NCBI GenBank assembly: GCA_016284975.1
Contig: JAEEPV010000154.1
Location: 1 to 9,885 of the forward strand
Reading direction: 5' to 3'
Source: Solobacterium sp.
GTDB lineage: Bacteria > Bacillota_I > Bacilli_A > Erysipelotrichales > Erysipelotrichaceae
DNA length: 9,885 bases
This document shows positions 1,569 to 9,600 of the stretch, in pieces. Below the pieces are notes generated by a model that saw only the letters and a program-made list of their open reading frames with translations, was not told where the DNA came from and did no database searches. Each line of letters starts with the position of its first letter. Position 1 is the stretch's first letter. The position numbers and the translations under genes were made by a program.

Positions 1569-3353
1569 TCAGATCCGGATCGTCAGAACATTCAGACCAA
1601 GAATATTCTGATAGGAGACATCCCGGGCGATCCTGGAAACCATACGGATGCCGATGTTTTTGGTGATATCTTCCGGATCAAAGAGTTTTGCCCGCTCCAG
1701 CGGATCAAATGGAACACAGTCATCCTTGATGCGCAGGATAATATCATCATTTTTATGAACAACGCGTACATCCACGGAATGTTTTTTATTGTCTTTGGGG
1801 AATCCTGCTTCAATAACGTTGCCGGCCATCTCTTCCAGGAACAGACCGGACAGATAGGAACGGCGTTCATCCACACCGCGCTCCGTACAGAAATCCTGGA
1901 TCCTCTGAGAAATGTTGACGACATCATCCAGACTCTTCAGGGAGATATCCATACGTTCATTTTCCGCAGCACCGAAATCCTTCGGGATCATCAGCAGCTG
2001 ATCCATATTCTTCGGGAATCTCCTGTTGTAAATGATGGAGTAGATCAGCGGATAGACTGCGGTAACGATACCGTTAAGAATTACCGAAGCATAAACACCG
2101 TTCATACCAAAGGCAGGAACCAGAAAAACGGCTGAAACACAGATAACGACTGCACCGTCGAGCGCTGCCTCGGTGTGAACGAGCAGCTGTTTCTTGGTGA
2201 CCTGTCCATAGTTGAGAGCGGTCTGACAGATCAGTCCCAGCGGCATGGCGAACGGAATCACACGGAAACCGGTGAGGGTCATCTGATAGATCAGTTCAGA
2301 GGGATCCCGATAGAAGATATGGGTAAACGGAACTGCACAGAGGATCAGTACAGTTATGACGCCGAATTCCGCCAGCATACACTTGGTAAGCAGGAGCTTC
2401 ACAATATCTTTGAGTGACTGCCGGTCTTCTTCACCAACCGCAACGCTCATCATCATCCGGCCAACTGCAGCCATACCGAGCGGAATCGCCCAGAAAACGG
2501 AAAACAGGCAGTCTGAAGCCTGAAACGAAGAAAGTGCTGCGGATCCGATATAACGAATCATCAGACTGTTCAGTACCTGTCGGCGGACTGCCATATACAG
2601 ACTCACCAGAGCACCAGGGAAACCGATCAAAACAATTTCCCAGATATCGGACAGATGCATGTGAACCAGTTTTAACTTCAGGATGGATTTGCCTTTGAAG
2701 TAATAGATCATCTGATAGATCAGATATACCCAGTATCCGATCGCGGAAGCCAGTGCAAGACCGAATGTCTGCATGCCCAGAACGCCGAGGAACAGCAGGG
2801 TCAGAATCAGGTTGGTGATTACGAATAATATTGTTGCGACGGTGGAACGCTTTCCCTGCATTTCCATGGAAAGGAAAGCCGAGAGCTGGTTTCCTAACAC
2901 CATCGGAAAGATACCGATTGCCATACCGAGCAGATAACGGTTGAATACCGCACGCACCACAGTGTCGGGGCTCATAAAGACAGCCAGATCAAACGTACCG
3001 GTGATCAGCAGAATGGAAGCGATGATCAGTGAAACGACGGTGGCAAGTGTCAGATCAAGACTGAAGATTTCCTGTGTCCGCTCGACCTGATTGGAGCCCA
3101 TGTATTTTCCGCAGAGGATCTGGGACCCACCCATCAGCATCGTGCTCATGGCTGCCGTAAATGACGTTATCGGGGCGTACAGGCCGATGGCGGAAAGGGC
3201 TGTTTCGCCTAACAGGTTCGAGCCGAAAATACTGGAGATGATTCCATTGAGCGAAGGAATCGCTACCAGCAGGATCTGCGCCGGAAGTAAACGAAAAAAT
3301 ACTTTCGAGATAACCTTGTCATTGGCAAGGGTCTGCGTAGCTGTATTGTTCAT
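1569..3353 (-). CDS. MATE-family transporter fused to C-terminal RsbW/SpoIIAB-like HATPase domain
   Basis: 594 residues, about 140 longer than a usual MATE exporter. Residues about 12-445 form a MATE-type multidrug/metabolite antiporter with around twelve helices; typical features are the early NLLGETALSAIGLYAP, GGSQILCGKYMG and the GMNGVYAS motif near helix 11. After a short linker, residues about 470-594 form a GHKL/HATPase domain of the anti-sigma kinase kind: N-box LFLEEMAGNVIEAG (E508, N512), a G1-like box DDCVPFDP (544-551) and a G2-like NIGIRMVSRIA (566-576), ending in GLNVLTIRI. RsbW/SpoIIAB enzymes bind ATP, phosphorylate a STAS partner and hold a sigma factor. A STAS gene lies 15 bp upstream in the same operon, so the fused domain probably acts on it at the membrane (inference). 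The ribosome binding site before ATG 3353 is weak (GGGA), suggesting dependence on upstream translation. The G1 position that is usually Gly is Cys546. Transport substrate unknown. Confidence 0.9.
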   Translation of the reverse strand: MNNTATQTLANDKVISKVFFRLLPAQILLVAIPSLNGIISSIFGSNLLGETALSAIGLYAPITSFTAAMSTMLMGGSQILCGKYMGSNQVERTQEIFSLDLTLATVVSLIIASILLITGTFDLAVFMSPDTVVRAVFNRYLLGMAIGIFPMVLGNQLSAFLSMEMQGKRSTVATILFVITNLILTLLFLGVLGMQTFGLALASAIGYWVYLIYQMIYYFKGKSILKLKLVHMHLSDIWEIVLIGFPGALVSLYMAVRRQVLNSLMIRYIGSAALSSFQASDCLFSVFWAIPLGMAAVGRMMMSVAVGEEDRQSLKDIVKLLLTKCMLAEFGVITVLILCAVPFTHIFYRDPSELIYQMTLTGFRVIPFAMPLGLICQTALNYGQVTKKQLLVHTEAALDGAVVICVSAVFLVPAFGMNGVYASVILNGIVTAVYPLIYSIIYNRRFPKNMDQLLMIPKDFGAAENERMDISLKSLDDVVNISQRIQDFCTERGVDERRSYLSGLFLEEMAGNVIEAGFPKDNKKHSVDVRVVHKNDDIILRIKDDCVPFDPLERAKLFDPEDITKNIGIRMVSRIARDVSYQNILGLNVLTIRI

Positions 3354-3368
3354 TTCAAATCCCGGTTA

Positions 3369-3671
3369 TTATTTCGCTTTAATGTCGATTGCGTCAGAGA
3401 ATCCGGTTACTTCAAAGATTTCCATAATAACCGGGCTGGCATTAATGATGCGCATTTCTCCCTGTTTCAGCATCTTCTTCTGTGTGGAAAGAAGCACACG
3501 CAGACCGGCAGAAGAAATATAGTCCAGTTCATCAAAATCAAATGTCAGATCGGTGATGCCATCCAGCTCTTTCTGAAGAACTGCTTCAAGATCCGGTGAA
3601 GTGACCGTGTCCAGACGCTCTGTCAGTTTGATGGTAAGCGCAGAATCTTTTTTGTCCAGTTTGATTTCCAT
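3369..3671 (-). CDS. STAS-domain anti-sigma factor antagonist-like protein
   Basis: 100 residues, a complete single-domain STAS protein of the SpoIIAA/RsbV type and size. The landmark is LDYISSAGLRVLL (49-61); Ser54 aligns with the serine phosphorylated in RsbV/SpoIIAA, with Ser53 adjacent. The C-terminal helix EIFEVTGFSDAI is also typical. Such proteins bind their kinase/anti-sigma partner when unphosphorylated. It is first in an operon whose next gene carries an RsbW-like kinase domain, so that domain is the obvious partner. The start is supported by AGGAGG (3677-3682) five bases before ATG. No PP2C-type phosphatase or sigma factor gene is visible in the window, so any output is unknown. 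Confidence 0.9.
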   Translation of the reverse strand: MEIKLDKKDSALTIKLTERLDTVTSPDLEAVLQKELDGITDLTFDFDELDYISSAGLRVLLSTQKKMLKQGEMRIINASPVIMEIFEVTGFSDAIDIKAK

Positions 3672-3720
3672 TTTGGCCTCCTTGGTTGTACAAAGGGCAT
3701 AAGCCCCGTGATTGATCTTA

Positions 3721-3841: not shown

Positions 3842-3868
3842 GTAATGCCGTTTTTTCGGCAGAATTAC
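3842..3868 (+). promoter_or_regulatory. 5'-end mRNA stem-loop ahead of the lipoprotein ribosome binding site
   Basis: GTAAT (3842-3846) pairs with ATTAC (3864-3868), and GCCG (3847-3850) with CGGC (3857-3860), enclosing six T residues, with an AGA bulge on the right side. Transcription from the TATAAT box would begin near 3846, so at least the inner stem would lie at the extreme 5' end, directly before AGGAGG (3869-3874). It could stabilise the mRNA or affect ribosome access. Confidence 0.45.
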
Positions 3869-3880
3869 AGGAGGTTACTG

Positions 3881-4648
3881 ATGATGAAGAAACTGATTCA
3901 TATACTGAGCGCAGCCCTTCTGGCCGTTTCCATGGCCGGCTGCAGTTCCAACGCCATCTTTTCCGATGAGATAGCGGAAAACGGAGATCTGATCGTTACC
4001 GCAGAGAATGCGGATATCAAATCCGCTGTTGCGACGGAGTATGATATTGCGGAAGGCGATACGGTCACGGTCACTTCGGAAGTGACCAAGGGCGGCATTA
4101 CCGTTAAGATGATCCGGGGCGGTTCGTCCGCCGAAACGCCGGCGGTAAGCTGGGAGTTCACGGAAGCCGGTACAACCGACTATCAGGTCGATCCGGGTTC
4201 CTACCTGGTTTCGTTTGAATCAACACAGAAACACACGACCGGCAAAATCACTTTCCATATCACCCATTCCGAAACAAAGGCTGAGGATGAAGGAGACACA
4301 CAGAATCCGACCATGAACTTTGTCGGCACCTATGCAAAAGACAGATGTTCCATTCTGGTTGAGGCACAGGGTCAGAACAACGCGAAGTTCACGGTTATGT
4401 GGGGATCCAGTGCGGCGGAACATTCCGAATGGACCATGAGCGGAAAGCTGGATACCGAAACGCTGACCGTTGATTACACAGACTGTGTAAAGAAGGATGT
4501 TGTATTCAAGGAAGATGGTACCATCGATACCGAGACTGTAATCTATGAGAACGGTACCGGCACCTTCAAGTTTGACGGTTCAACACTGACCTGGACCGAC
4601 AACAACGAGAACGCTGCCGACGGCATGGTCTTCGAATACGCAAATTAA
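3881..4648 (+). CDS. Two-domain secreted lipoprotein of unknown function
   Basis: 255 residues from ATG 3881, chosen because AGGAGG (3869-3874) lies six bases upstream; the adjacent ATG at 3884 is also possible, and longer in-frame starts precede the ribosome binding site. The N-terminus MMKKLIHILSAALLAVSMAGC is a lipoprotein signal peptide with lipobox MAGC, so Cys21 should be lipidated and the protein anchored outside the membrane; Met at the -3 position is slightly atypical. Residues about 24-130 look like an all-beta domain containing VDPGSYLVSFES. After an acidic linker, residues 145-255 form a second beta-rich domain starting NFVGTYAKDRCSILVEA, with WTMSGKLDTETLTVDY and ending DGMVFEY. 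It resembles small beta-barrel lipoprotein domains of gut Bacillota, but I know no function. It is divergent from the STAS operon. No intrinsic terminator is seen after the stop codon, so read-through into the L10 leader is possible. Confidence 0.8.
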   Translation: MMKKLIHILSAALLAVSMAGCSSNAIFSDEIAENGDLIVTAENADIKSAVATEYDIAEGDTVTVTSEVTKGGITVKMIRGGSSAETPAVSWEFTEAGTTDYQVDPGSYLVSFESTQKHTTGKITFHITHSETKAEDEGDTQNPTMNFVGTYAKDRCSILVEAQGQNNAKFTVMWGSSAAEHSEWTMSGKLDTETLTVDYTDCVKKDVVFKEDGTIDTETVIYENGTGTFKFDGSTLTWTDNNENAADGMVFEYAN

Positions 4649-5446: not shown

Positions 5447-5818
5447 ATGGCAAAGTTAACTAAGGATGAAATTCTTGCTTATCTCGATGAAGCTACTATT
5501 CTTGAGCTCAAGGAACGCGTAAAGGCAGTTGAAGAGAAGTACGGCGTAAGCGCTGCTGCTCCGGTTGCTGTTGCAGCTGCTCCGGCGGAAGCTGCTCAGG
5601 AAGAGGCTAAGAACGTTACTGTCGTTCTGACCAGCGTTGGTGATGCCAAGGTCGGCGTTATCAAGGTTGTTCGTACTATCACTGGTCTTGGCCTTGTTGA
5701 GGCTAAGAAGCTTGTTGATGCTCTGCCTGCAGAGATCAAGAAGGATGTACCGGCTGAAGAAGCTGACAACATTAAGAAGCAGCTTGTTGACGCAGGTGCA
5801 ACTGTTGAGTACAAATAA
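5447..5818 (+). CDS. rplL: 50S ribosomal protein L7/L12
   Basis: 123 residues, normal family length. L7/L12 dimers form the flexible stalk that recruits translation GTPases. The N-terminal dimerisation domain is [20 protein letters not shown], followed by [18 protein letters not shown], an Ala-rich hinge and the C-terminal factor-binding domain with [20 protein letters not shown] (82 onward) and the end [15 protein letters not shown] (5432-5437) overlaps the rplJ stop codon and lies nine bases before ATG, giving strong translation suited to the excess of L12 over L10. Codons favour GCT and GTT, as expected of a highly expressed gene. Confidence 0.97.
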
Positions 5819-5845
5819 TCGCCTGCTAAACAATTCACTTGAACA

Positions 5846-5876
5846 GCCGAGGGTATATTTATGACCCTTGGCTTTT
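5846..5876 (+). terminator. Hairpin terminator/attenuator after rplL
   Basis: GCCGAGGGT (5846-5854) pairs with ACCCTTGGC (5864-5872) over nine pairs with one G-U, followed by TTTT. It lies 27 bases after the rplL stop codon and 25 before the next start. It probably lowers transcription into the methyltransferase gene and rpoB relative to the ribosomal genes. Confidence 0.8.
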
Positions 5877-5900
5877 CGCCCCTTTGAAAGGAGTACACGG

Positions 5901-6503
5901 ATGGAAGCGAAGCACTATTTCACAGACAACCGGGATCTCCCATCACACCGACGGGAATTAAAGTATTTCTTTCAGGGGGTGAATTATGTATTCACCGTGG
6001 ATGACGGCGTCTTCTCAAAAAGCGATGTGGACTACGGTACCCATACGCTTCTCAAAGACGCGGTGAAGGAACCGATCTTCGGATCCGTGCTGGATCTGGG
6101 ATGCGGCTATGGCGTGATCGGAATCGTGCTGAAAAAGACCTTTCCGGAAATCACGGCAACAGCGGTGGATATCAATCCAAGAGCTGCAGAACTGACGGAA
6201 GCCAATAGTACGGCAAACGGAACACCCGTGGAAGTGCTGGTTTCGGATGGGTTTGAGGCGATCAAAGACCGGTCGTTTCAGGTCATTCTCACCAACCCGC
6301 CGATCCGGGCAGGCAAGCAGATAATTTACCGCATGTTTGAGGATGCGTATGCGCATCTGGAAAACGGCGGACTGTTTCTCGCAGTCATGCGCAGAAACCA
6401 GGGCGCCGAAAGTGCTATGAAAAAGCTTGCCGAACTGTTTGGTTCGTGCGATCTGGCTGACAGGGACCGCGGCTATTGGGTTCTGAAATGCGTCAAATTG
6501 TGA
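5901..6503 (+). CDS. Class I SAM-dependent methyltransferase, YbxB/RsmC-like
   Basis: 200 residues, like Bacillus subtilis YbxB, which lies in the same place between rplL and rpoB. It is a single RsmC-type methyltransferase domain without the duplicated N-terminal half of E. coli RsmC. Visible motifs are the family start EAKHYFTDN, the conserved DDGVFSKSDVDYGTHTLL (34-51), SAM-binding motif I VLDLGCGYGVIG (63-74), acidic D90 at the end of strand 2, and the catalytic-type motif TNPPIRAGK (131-139) characteristic of N-methyltransferases that modify RNA bases. RsmC methylates a 16S rRNA guanine; a similar rRNA target is likely but not proven for YbxB proteins. The start ATG 5901 has AAAGGAG seven bases upstream. 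The protein is complete and no motif is missing. Confidence 0.92.
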   Translation: MEAKHYFTDNRDLPSHRRELKYFFQGVNYVFTVDDGVFSKSDVDYGTHTLLKDAVKEPIFGSVLDLGCGYGVIGIVLKKTFPEITATAVDINPRAAELTEANSTANGTPVEVLVSDGFEAIKDRSFQVILTNPPIRAGKQIIYRMFEDAYAHLENGGLFLAVMRRNQGAESAMKKLAELFGSCDLADRDRGYWVLKCVKL

Positions 6504-6506
6504 AAA

Positions 6507-6536
6507 TTGACCCTATTATTACTACTATGTTAATAT
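6507..6536 (+). promoter_or_regulatory. Candidate rpoB promoter
   Basis: TTGACC (6507-6512) and TAATAT (6531-6536) each match the consensus at five of six positions, with an 18-base spacer. The predicted start near 6543 lies just before the leader hairpin. It begins four bases after the methyltransferase stop codon and would let rpoB be transcribed apart from the ribosomal genes. Confidence 0.65.
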
Positions 6537-6545
6537 TATAAGCTG

Positions 6546-6592
6546 ACACATTATCGAAAATGAGGGGTTCAAACCCTCTTTCGGTGTGTTTT
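6546..6592 (+). promoter_or_regulatory. Large stem-loop in the rpoB leader
   Basis: Three stacked stems are visible: ACACA (6546-6550) with TGTGT (6585-6589), CGAAA (6555-6559) with TTTCG (6579-6583), and GAGGG (6562-6566) with CCCTC (6574-6578), around loop GTTCAAA. Short bulges (TTAT, AT and one G) separate them. A TTTT run at 6589-6592 follows directly, as in an intrinsic terminator. It could be an attenuator of rpoB or a terminator for transcripts from upstream. Confidence 0.6.
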
Positions 6593-6620
6593 CAGCCCAG
6601 CAGGCGAAAGGATGGCAAAC

Positions 6621-9600
6621 ATGGAAAAAAAGCAATCGTACCACATTGTGAAGTACGGCAACAAAGCTGTCCGTCGTGACTATTCCAAAGTATCGGCGGG
6701 CCTGGATCTTCCTGATTTGACAGAGATCCAGACGGCATCCTTTGAATGGTTCCTGAAAGACGGAATCAGGGAAGTGTTTAACGACATTTACCCGATCTAC
6801 AACTTCGGCGGAAACATCAAGCTGAAGTTCATCGACTATGAATTTGGCGAGCCGAAATACAACATTTCGGAATGCAAGTACCGTGAGGTCAACTACTGTG
6901 CTCCGCTCAAGGCCAAGATGGAACTTGAGATGGTTGAACCGGAGACCGGTGAAGTTCTGACAAAGTGGGAAGAAGTCTTTCTTGGCGATTTCCCGCTCAT
7001 GACTCCGACCGGAACATTCATCATCAACGGTGCAGAGCGTGTTATCGTTTCGCAGATCGTCCGTTCCCCGGGTGCTTATTTTGACATCATTTCCGAAGAG
7101 CGCACCGGCCGTGACACCTATACCTGCGAACTGATTCCGAGCCGCGGTACCTGGCTGGAATTCATGTCGGACGACAAGAAGGCGGCGCTCGGCCGCATCA
7201 TGAACGTTTCGATCGACCGCAGAAGAAAGATCTTCTCTACGATTCTGTTCAAGGCGATCGGAATGTCTCTGAATACCGAACGCAATGAGGACGCTTTTGA
7301 CACCACAAAGATGGAAAAGCTGCTCAAGGCACTTCGGTTCGAACTGTATCCGGATGTCATCGTTCCGGAACAGGATACCGAGCATCTGAATGAATACATG
7401 ATGCTGTATACCAGTGTGTTCGGAAACTACGAAGAAATCTGCAACACATTGGATGCGGATAAGAAGATCAAGACGACAAAGGAAGCGCTCATGGCAGTTT
7501 ACATGAACCAGCGCGCGGACGAAATCGCAACCGAAGAAGGATCCCTCACAACGATGGATCAGAAGTTCTTCGATTACCGTCGTTATGATCTGACCAAAGC
7601 CGGCCGCTACAAGGTTCTCAAGAAGCTGAATGTGCTCGACCGTATGGAAGGCCATGTGCTCAAGAGCGACCTGATCGGAGCGGATGGAAAAGTGGTTTTC
7701 CGTAAGAACCGGCGGATCAATCAGGCAGAGCGTGACGCGCTGCGCCCGGAAATCAACAAGGGCATCAGCTGCCATGCACTGCCGTACAACTACCTGTTCT
7801 CGCATCCGGTAACCGCGGAAATGGAAACTTCCTGGACCGATGCCCTCGTCGGCCGTATTCTTGCGACGGATCTCGACGGCAAGAAGATCCATTATGAACA
7901 GGGAACCGTTCTGATTCCGGAAGATATCAAAAATATCGCAAAGGAATTTGACAAGGTTACGGTTTACGCAGGCATTATCGCAAGTGAGGCAAAGCTCACA
8001 AACGACAACGCTTCTGCGATCCTCGACCTTGGCTCCAGAATGTTCTCCATCGGCCGTGTAACGGAAAACGGCGCAGATCTTTGCCGTGAAGATGAGACGC
8101 TCATCGCTTCCCGTTACATCCCGGATGATGTACTCGTGCCGCTGACCACTGCGGATAAGGAACTGATCCAGCAGGAAGTCATGGAATCCGGCAACAAAGC
8201 CGTCAGCGTCTGGCTGGTCGGCGCATGCGTGCAGGAAGTAACGATCGTCACCGAGGAAGGTCATGAAGTAAAGGTTATCGGCGGTGACCCGCTGAACACC
8301 AAGCACACCATTACGATGTCCGACATGTACTCGCTGTACAGCTATGAGCTGAACATGCTTGACGGTGTCGGTACAGCGGATGATATCGATATGCTGGGCA
8401 ACCGGCGTATCCGTACCGTCGGTGAGCTGATCCAGAACCAGTTCCGGATCGGTCTTTCCCGTATGGAACGTACCGTTAAGGAGCGGATGTCCATTACCGA
8501 TTCCGCAGCCCTGACACCGAAGCAGCTGACGAATATCCGTCCGCTGACGGCAGCGATCAAGGAGTTCTTCTCCAGTTCACAGCTGTCCCAGTTCATGGAC
8601 CAGCAGAACCCGCTGGCGGAGCTGTCCAACAAGCGTCGTATTTCCGCGCTTGGTCCGGGCGGTCTCACCCGTGAGCGTGCCGGCTTCGAAGTACGTGATA
8701 TTCACAACTCTCACTATGGAAGAATCTGTCCGATCGAAACACCGGAAGGTCCGAATATCGGTCTGATCTCCTATCTCACAACGTATGCCAAGGTCAACGA
8801 GTATGGCTTCATTCAGACGCCGTATCGTAAGGTCGTAAACGGAAAAGTCACGGATGATATCAAATATATGTCCGCAGATGAAGAGAACGACCACGTGATC
8901 GCTCAGGCAAACGAGATCAAGGACGGAAAGCTGGTCGGTGACCGTATCGTCGCCCGTAAGGCCGGTGAAACCATCATGGCAGACCGTGACATGATCGACT
9001 ACGCGGACGTTTCGCCGCGTCAGATCGTATCGGTTGCGACCTCCTGTGTCCCGTTCCTTGAAAACGATGACTGTACACGAGCTCTGATGGGCGCGAACAT
9101 GCAGAGACAGGCAGTGCCTCTGCTTGATCCGCACAGCCCGTATGTCGGCACCGGCATTGAGCACCGTATCGCCCGTGACTCCGGCGCGGCCTGTGTCGCG
9201 ACCGCTCCGGGAACGGTAACCTATGTCGACGCAGACAAGATCATCGTTACCGAAGACAACGGAACCGAACATGAGTATCCGCTTACCAAGTTCCGCCGTT
9301 CCAACGCTTCGACCTGTCTGAACCAGCATCCGATCGTTCAGGATGGCGAGCGCATCGAACGCGGTGATATCCTCGCCGATGGTCCGGCCATGCAGAACGG
9401 TGAGCTGGCACTTGGTCAGAACGTGCTGATCGCGTTCATGACCTGGCACGGTTACAACTACGAAGATGCGATCATCATGAGTGAGCGCATGGTTCGTGAA
9501 GATGTCTATACCTCCATTCACATCGAGGAATATGACATTGAGTGCCGTGAGACAAAGCTCGGTCCGGAAGAAATCACACGTGATATTCCGAATGTTGCCG

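What the first reader, a model, noticed from the sequence alone, without database searches (positions are those of the whole stretch)
1569..3671. STAS protein paired with a MATE transporter that carries its own anti-sigma-type kinase domain
Seen: a complete STAS protein with ISSAG at the phospho-serine site, and 15 bp downstream a MATE transporter with an extra C-terminal HATPase domain having E508/N512, DDCVPFDP and NIGIRMVSRIA. Established: RsbW/SpoIIAB kinases phosphorylate RsbV/SpoIIAA STAS proteins and switch partners. Inference: transport or substrate occupancy may control the kinase domain, or phosphorylation state may gate the transporter, giving a membrane-bound partner switch. I know of no described function for this arrangement, though similar fusions may exist unannotated in genomes.
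Basis: partly seen in the sequence, partly recalled or inferred. Interest (0 to 1): 0.78.

Follow-up and report, generated by a model that had tools for sequence, protein, structure and literature searches.

The report
Transporter fused to partner-switch kinase domain
A relative of the gut bacterium Solobacterium encodes a membrane transporter of the drug-exporter (MATE) fold joined in one protein to a kinase-type domain of the kind that normally controls sigma factors, beside the small STAS protein that this domain is predicted to bind, so a phosphorylation switch likely acts directly on a transporter.

Summary
A 100-aa STAS protein (3369-3671, -) lies 15 bp before a 594-aa protein with a MATE fold and a C-terminal HATPase_c_2 domain (1569-3353, -). 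It is no artefact: 1326 protein clusters match the C-terminal part and 556 genome stretches encode relatives. Pairing with partner-switch genes is real but not universal: of 80 loci kept, 24 have a STAS gene within about 6 kb, 22 a SpoIIE-type phosphatase, 16 an APH (mostly STAS-APH) gene, 48 none; 63 of 66 such neighbours are co-directional. In 49 of these genomes 18 loci have a STAS gene nearby, against 0.8 expected. Distant fusions in two genomes of the window's class sit in an ordered trio fusion, STAS, phosphatase-HATPase; one of them shows a single sigma-70 match, so an alternative sigma-70 target is unlikely there. In the window's subfamily the TM1 and TM5 aspartates of MATE pumps are replaced and one ATP-box glycine is cysteine. 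SDF symporters, also in this genome, carry a degenerate HATPase-like domain. I favour a membrane partner switch whose output is the transporter. Direction, kinase activity and substrate are untested. My searches of open-licence papers found no description.

The parts
3369..3671 (-). STAS-only protein, 100 aa, RsbV/SpoIIAA-like
   Evidence: Pfam STAS 56.3 bits; NCBIfam ant_ant_sig 65.3 bits, above cut-off
3510..3512 (-). codon of Ser54, predicted phosphorylation site in YISSAG
   Evidence: aligned with SpoIIAA/RsbV; invariant in 22 of 22 STAS-only proteins
3677..3683 (-). AAGGAGG, likely ribosome-binding site of the STAS gene, 5 bases before its ATG
   Evidence: sequence
1569..3353 (-). MATE-HATPase fusion protein, 594 aa
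   Evidence: AlphaFold2 model of the near-identical P0001, pLDDT 83.5, pTM 0.83
1989..3353 (-). MATE/MOP membrane domain, residues 1-455
3234..3236 (-). codon of Ser40, in place of the TM1 Asp of PfMATE (D41)
   Evidence: alignment of the family profile to 3vvn; S in 134, T in 8, A in 1 of 143 fusions
1572..1958 (-). C-terminal HATPase_c_2 domain, residues 466-594 (RsbW/SpoIIAB type)
   Evidence: Pfam HATPase_c_2 475-593; hhalign of the family to 16 canonical HATPases prob 97%, E 8e-11
1716..1718 (-). codon of Cys546, replacing the glycine of the DxG (G1) box
   Evidence: C in 142 of 143 fusions; G in 16 of 16 canonical HATPases of related loci and this genome
907..1557 (-). SdpI/DUF1648 membrane protein, start 11 bases after the fusion's stop; likely third gene of the operon
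   Evidence: Pfam SdpI 78.2 bits; same order in L001

Best explanation
The gene pair encodes a STAS protein and a MATE-fold transporter fused to an RsbW/SpoIIAB-type HATPase domain, and together with SpoIIE-type phosphatases they likely form a membrane partner switch in which the transporter takes the place that a sigma factor has in the classical system. Proposed cycle: sensor phosphatases of the SpoIIE/PP2C type (8 matches in this genome, on other contigs) would dephosphorylate STAS Ser54; unphosphorylated STAS would dock on the fused HATPase domain at the membrane and change the state of the MATE domain; a kinase, either the fused domain itself or a canonical solo kinase such as the one on contig C66, would rephosphorylate STAS and release it. 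Shown: the architecture, its conservation, its linkage and co-occurrence with STAS, PP2C and STAS-APH genes, and the residue changes. Inferred: every binding, phosphorylation and gating step, the direction of signalling, and the transported substrate.
For: Architecture real and widespread. Linkage in 80 loci: any STAS 24, PP2C 22, APH 16 (one cut by a contig end), further HATPase 15, any of these 32; 63 of 66 neighbours on the same strand, 57 of them upstream. Chance expectation 0.8 of 49 loci, observed 18 (relatedness of the genomes not modelled). Within 1.5 kb 26 of 80 fusion loci against 0 of 26 unfused MATE loci. Co-occurrence: of 79 genomes of one order 9 have a fusion and all 9 also have STAS-APH, which 16 of 79 have (Fisher p 5.6e-8; 2.7e-7 without the centre genome). 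Distant fusions L128 and L129 lie in a same-strand trio fusion, STAS, PP2C-HATPase with gaps of 4 to 11 bases. Against a sigma target: genome G073 (97% complete) has one Sigma70_r2 match, in a 439-aa frame. For the transporter as output: SDF symporters of fusion genomes, including this one, carry an N-terminal HATPase-like domain (hhalign prob 96.7%, E 3.4e-10; STAS and reversed controls 0.1-0.2%) in which none of 15 aligned shows the N-box Asn or G1 Asp (read by eye), so it is unlikely to be a kinase and may be a docking module. The 16 canonical HATPases examined keep DxG and GGLG while the fused domain does not.
Against: 48 of 80 loci have no partner-switch gene within about 6 kb, though 23 of the 80 have under 5.5 kb of upstream sequence. 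The window has no phosphatase or canonical kinase beside the pair. E508, N512 and D544 are invariant (143 of 143), which fits an active kinase better than a pure docking domain, and the distant fusions L097 and L099 keep DDG. In the window's subfamily the TM1 and TM5 aspartates are replaced, which could mean a sensor rather than a working pump. The SDF domain is below Pfam's cut-off wherever reported and was missed in two of the profile comparisons. No complex was modelled and no interface tested.
Confidence: 0.5

Rival explanations
1. Transceptor: the MATE domain is a sensor that has lost ordinary ion coupling, and substrate binding controls the fused kinase, whose phosphorylation of STAS is the output (acting on STAS-APH, other kinases or gene expression).
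For: TM1 Asp replaced by S, T or A in 143 of 143 and TM5 Asp by N, T or S in 137 of 143, while the 3 unfused MATEs compared keep the TM1 Asp; ATP-site E, N, D invariant; transporter-histidine kinase fusions such as CbrA set the precedent (search listing).
Against: Other fusion subfamilies keep acidic residues at both positions, so their loss is not needed for the fused system; at TM5 one of two unfused MATEs also has Asn; candidate sensors already exist as PP2C phosphatases with long N-terminal parts, HAMP in two of the 68 ORFs scanned; the SDF proteins carry a domain that looks kinase-dead.
Confidence: 0.3
2. Membrane-tethered anti-sigma factor: the fused domain sequesters an alternative sigma factor, and the MATE domain is mainly an anchor or a co-regulated pump.
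For: The domain belongs to the HATPase_c_2 family of RsbW/SpoIIAB, and a distant fusion matches the SpoIIAB and RsbW models, below their cut-offs; the window's genome has six Sigma70_r2 matches.
Against: G073 has the full trio but a single Sigma70_r2 match; no sigma family is among the 25 commonest Pfam families of 68 neighbouring ORFs from 19 loci (35 further families were not listed).
Confidence: 0.1
3. The fused HATPase domain only stabilises or assembles the transporter, and the STAS gene is there by operon shuffling.
For: 48 of 80 loci lack a nearby partner-switch gene.
Against: The HATPase part is more conserved than the MATE part (66% against 58% mean identity over 1500 random pairs); 18 of 49 loci linked against 0.8 expected; 9 of 9 fusion genomes also have STAS-APH.
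Confidence: 0.1

Closest known systems
RsbU/RsbV/RsbW-SigB and SpoIIE/SpoIIAA/SpoIIAB-SigF partner switches
   Same: PP2C phosphatase, STAS protein with the same serine, HATPase_c_2 domain with N-box Glu and Asn; co-directional gene clusters
   Different: the HATPase domain is fused to a transporter; no sigma factor found in the module; altered G1 and G2 boxes; extra STAS-APH protein
CbrA/CrbS SLC5-histidine kinase transceptors
   Same: a secondary transporter and a kinase domain in one polypeptide
   Different: MATE instead of SLC5; serine-kinase-type domain and STAS neighbour instead of a two-component phosphorelay
SLC26/SulP transporters with a C-terminal STAS domain; MlaFB with STAS protein MlaB
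   Same: partner-switch type folds used on transporters
   Different: there the STAS domain is the fused or bound part; here the kinase-type domain is fused and STAS is free (that no phosphorylation cycle is known there is recalled)
PfMATE and other DinF-type MATE transporters
   Different: TM1 and TM5 aspartates replaced in the window's subfamily; C-terminal HATPase domain

Membership tests
MATE (MatE, MOP superfamily) | MatE profile and MOP fold | tested here: met
MATE, DinF-type cation coupling | Asp in TM1 and TM5 of the N-lobe (D41, D184 of PfMATE) | tested here: not met
   TM1: S 134, T 8, A 1 of 143; TM5: N 129, T 7, D 6, S 1 of 143; window itself S40 and T185; role of the residues from passages of PMC12358922
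RsbW/SpoIIAB serine kinases (HATPase_c_2) | HATPase_c_2 profile | tested here: met
   37.5 bits, cut-off 27.4
RsbW/SpoIIAB serine kinases (HATPase_c_2) | N-box Glu and Asn, G1 Asp | tested here: met
   E508, N512, D544 in 143 of 143
RsbW/SpoIIAB serine kinases (HATPase_c_2) | G1 glycine (DxG) and G2 glycines | tested here: not met
   Cys546 in 142 of 143, Asn566 in 139 of 143; the last G2 glycine G568 kept in 143 of 143
RsbW/SpoIIAB serine kinases (HATPase_c_2) | phosphorylates the STAS partner | not testable with these tools
   needs biochemistry
RsbW/SpoIIAB anti-sigma factors | sigma factor encoded with it | tested here: not met
   no Sigma70_r2 match on the window's contig; a distant trio sits in a genome with one such match
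RsbV/SpoIIAA anti-anti-sigma STAS proteins | STAS-only protein with the conserved serine | tested here: met
   below the SpoIIAA equivalog cut-off (45.8 against 114.75 bits)
Transporter-kinase transceptors (CbrA type) | SLC5 domain plus histidine kinase with phosphoacceptor His | tested here: not met
   Pfam finds only MatE and HATPase_c_2 in the fusion at E<=0.01

The most novel reading that the evidence does not exclude
Gut Firmicutes run a sigma-factor-free partner switch that controls secondary transporters directly: PP2C phosphatases and kinases set the phosphorylation of STAS proteins, and these dock on HATPase modules fused to the transporters themselves, C-terminal on MATE proteins and N-terminal, kinase-dead, on SDF symporters.
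Probability: 0.4. Interest if true: 0.88.

Novelty: new variant of a known kind. Interest (0 to 1): 0.72.

Why it matters
Partner switching is known chiefly as a way to release sigma factors. Here its parts are fused to a transporter family, and a degenerate form to a second one, in gut and rumen bacteria, which makes it directly testable whether the switch can gate transport after translation. It would also give a function to a large family for which the names seen are mostly 'ATP-binding protein', and bear on why a genome keeps 8 SpoIIE-type phosphatases with apparently only two RsbW-type kinase domains.

Tried and rejected
Fold search with the whole fusion model is filled by MATE, MurJ and WzxE chains; the HATPase part was not searched alone, so nothing is claimed about its closest solved structure. 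The search with the SDF model is likewise filled by glutamate-transporter chains. Sequence search of the HATPase part against solved structures found only designed repeats and chance hits; the solo kinase L081 reaches RsbW and SpoIIAB weakly (E 0.019 and about 0.5). The SDF N-domain of L037 alone gave no hhalign match (0.4%), and the first SDF profile gave none against the fused-HATPase profile (3%) while matching the canonical HATPases at 93%; the wider set of 15 gave 97% and 96%. Pfam reports that domain only below its cut-off (3 of 10, E 0.02-0.03).

Considered and rejected: frame or assembly artefact (many independent homologues); a truncated histidine kinase (no phosphoacceptor domain); an ordinary SpoIIA or RsbVW operon (no sigma factor found). 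A complex of STAS and HATPase was not attempted, because the structure tool takes single chains and only unchanged sequences. Literature searches on this arrangement, none of which returned a description. The tree puts the MATE parts of 48 fusions in one supported group (99) and leaves it open whether the pair L128/L129 is a second origin (support 61).

Limits of the counts: the 80 loci are the best of 556 by similarity; 49 of their genomes were handed. The chance model treats STAS genes as scattered and the genomes as independent. The 26 unfused MATEs come from the window's class, the 80 fusions mostly from others. The 143 fusions are full-length rows under 95% identity out of 202 rows, after leaving out the second L064 fusion. 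The 16 canonical HATPases are those scoring over 80 bits without a MATE part in L001-L086; the weaker HATPase parts behind the phosphatases of L128 and L129 are not among them. 'WINDOW', and the modelled protein, are the near-identical P0001 (99% over residues 440-594), not the window's own letters. In the 79-genome set the centre genome G163 was chosen because it has the system; without it the table is 8 of 8 against 7 of 70.

Full report

How common it is. A search with residues 440-594 gave 1326 protein clusters at E<=0.001; the 120 listed all carry both domains. A scan of one genome per species found 556 stretches that encode relatives, of which 80 were kept, mostly rumen and gut Solobacterium, other Erysipelotrichaceae, Lachnospiraceae, Oscillospiraceae, Butyrivibrio and Sarcina; the nearest is a sheep-gut Solobacterium at 80% identity. 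Of the names shown, those from NCBI read 'ATP-binding protein', and one source names both halves.

The neighbours. Local profiles, seeded from proteins that Pfam had identified, were run over all ORFs of the 80 loci. Within about 6 kb: any STAS 24 of 80, STAS-only 19, SpoIIE PP2C 22, APH 16 (15 of them STAS-APH, some with a C-terminal HATPase; one cut by a contig end), further HATPase 15, none of these 48. Of 66 such neighbours 63 are on the fusion's strand, 57 of them upstream. Only 57 of the 80 have at least 5.5 kb upstream; of these 24 have a partner-switch gene. In 49 of the genomes there are 167 STAS matches in 125 Mb, so 0.8 loci are expected to have one within 6 kb by chance; 18 do. As a control, 26 unfused MATE genes from genomes of the window's class have no STAS, PP2C or HATPase gene within about 1.5 kb; at that distance 26 of the 80 fusion loci have one, 18 of them a STAS.

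Co-occurrence without linkage. In 79 genomes of the order of G163, 9 have a fusion and 16 have STAS-APH; all 9 are among the 16 (p 5.6e-8; 2.7e-7 without the centre genome). In 5 of the 9 the two genes lie within about 5 kb on one contig, in one of these on opposite strands.

Divergent fusions. Several subfamilies exist. In two genomes of 1.1 and 1.3 Mb of the window's class (G073, G056) a distant fusion, with an acidic residue at both MATE positions and a canonical DDG box, is followed by STAS and a PP2C-HATPase gene with gaps of 4 to 11 bases. G073, 97% complete, has one Sigma70_r2 match, in a 439-aa frame that I take for the primary sigma factor by its size, so the switch is unlikely to serve an alternative sigma-70 factor there; sigma-54 was not tested. 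G056 has two such matches.

What changed in the window's subfamily. Among 143 non-redundant fusions the TM1 residue that is D41 in PfMATE is Ser 134, Thr 8, Ala 1; the TM5 residue (D184) is Asn 129, Thr 7, Asp 6, Ser 1. R257, R299 and D399 are nearly invariant (141, 143, 141). In the HATPase domain E508, N512, D544, F549, P551 and G568 are invariant, but the G1 glycine is Cys546 in 142 and G2 starts with Asn566 in 139. Sixteen canonical HATPases from related loci and this genome keep DxG and GGLG. Three unfused MATEs compared keep the TM1 Asp; at TM5, where two could be read, one has Asp and one Asn. The two aspartates serve proton-coupled switching in DinF MATEs (passages of PMC12358922), and the NorM counterpart D36 matters for ion coupling in NorM-VC whereas D38N in NorM-PS had no noticeable effect (passages of PMC8113278). 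So ordinary N-lobe coupling is doubtful here, but transport is not excluded.

A second transporter family. SDF symporters upstream of the fusion in L002, L003 and L037, and elsewhere in fusion genomes including this one (L150:1750-3357), carry an N-terminal domain whose profile, built from 15 of them, matches the canonical HATPases (hhalign 96.7%, E 3.4e-10; controls 0.1-0.2%). The predicted order of strands and main helices is that of the fused HATPase domain, though parts of the SDF model are of low confidence. Read by eye, none of the 15 has the N-box Asn or the G1 Asp, so it is likely kinase-dead. Of 40 fusion genomes searched, 21 have a match to the SDF alignment at E<=1e-30; in 12 of them, G000 included, a match begins before position 40 and so takes in the extra domain.

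This genome. G000 (70% complete) has STAS proteins on C212 (this one), C314 and C284 (fused to a HAD hydrolase), RsbW-type HATPases here and on C66, eight SpoIIE matches and six Sigma70_r2 matches. The three other HATPase_c_2 matches (C283, C201, C87) look like sensor histidine kinases by size and context; that is by eye.

Interpretation. The anatomy is that of a partner switch with the kinase-type domain fused to a transporter. I favour the transporter as output because candidate sensors exist elsewhere as phosphatases, no sigma factor was found in the module, and the SDF proteins carry what looks like the docking part alone. The sensor rival stays open because the ATP-site residues are invariant and the N-lobe aspartates are replaced. 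All protein-protein and phosphorylation steps are inferred from the RsbU/V/W and SpoIIE/AA/AB systems (passages of PMC8256260).

Known or new. Transporter-kinase fusions exist as CbrA and CrbS (abstract starts in the listing), and STAS parts act on transporters in SulP (passages) and MlaFB (abstract start in the listing). A partner-switch kinase domain fused to MATE or SDF transporters was not found in print, which search open-licence papers only. It is a new variant that combines two known kinds.

Noticed in passing
L150:1750-3357 (-); L002:2244-3890 (+); L003, L037, L140, L142, L144, L145, L147-L149, L151-L154: SDF (dicarboxylate symporter) proteins with an N-terminal degenerate HATPase-like domain, also in the window's own genome; Pfam reports the domain only below its cut-off.
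   Followed up: partly
L005:2709-4286, L022:3552-5132, L040:4404-5957 and others: STAS-APH and STAS-APH-HATPase proteins: a STAS domain fused to a phosphotransferase-type domain and sometimes to a canonical RsbW-like domain. The APH part may be a second kinase of the switch.
   Followed up: partly
L083:5814-6908 (+), own genome contig C284: STAS domain fused to a HAD hydrolase; in other loci a HAD gene stands just before the MATE-HATPase gene (L005, L010, L030).
   Followed up: no
own genome G000, contigs C165, C9, C269, C99, C82, C6, C60, C97: Eight SpoIIE-type phosphatase matches in one genome that seems to have only two RsbW-type HATPases: many inputs, few kinases.
   Followed up: no
L006:5073-5732, L008:7815-8471, L009:7818-8474, L044:5275-5976, L067:5326-5985: D-Ala-D-Ala dipeptidase (Peptidase_M15) genes recur beside the fusion (Pfam for L044; the others by clustering and the tally), and DUF218 genes such as L024:4695-5957; a hint at cell-envelope substrates.
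   Followed up: no
L064:3771-5543 and 5563-7359: Two MATE-HATPase fusions of different subfamilies in tandem in one cluster.
   Followed up: no
L065:7785-10016 (+): SpoIIE phosphatase fused to a GNAT acetyltransferase domain directly after the fusion gene.
   Followed up: no
window 3845-4648 (+): Divergent lipoprotein-like gene without a Pfam family, kept in the same place in L001.
   Followed up: no
L082:1840-6816 (-), own genome contig C314: A second STAS gene followed by a 977-aa protease-like and a TIR-like protein (judged by eye from the sequence only).
   Followed up: no
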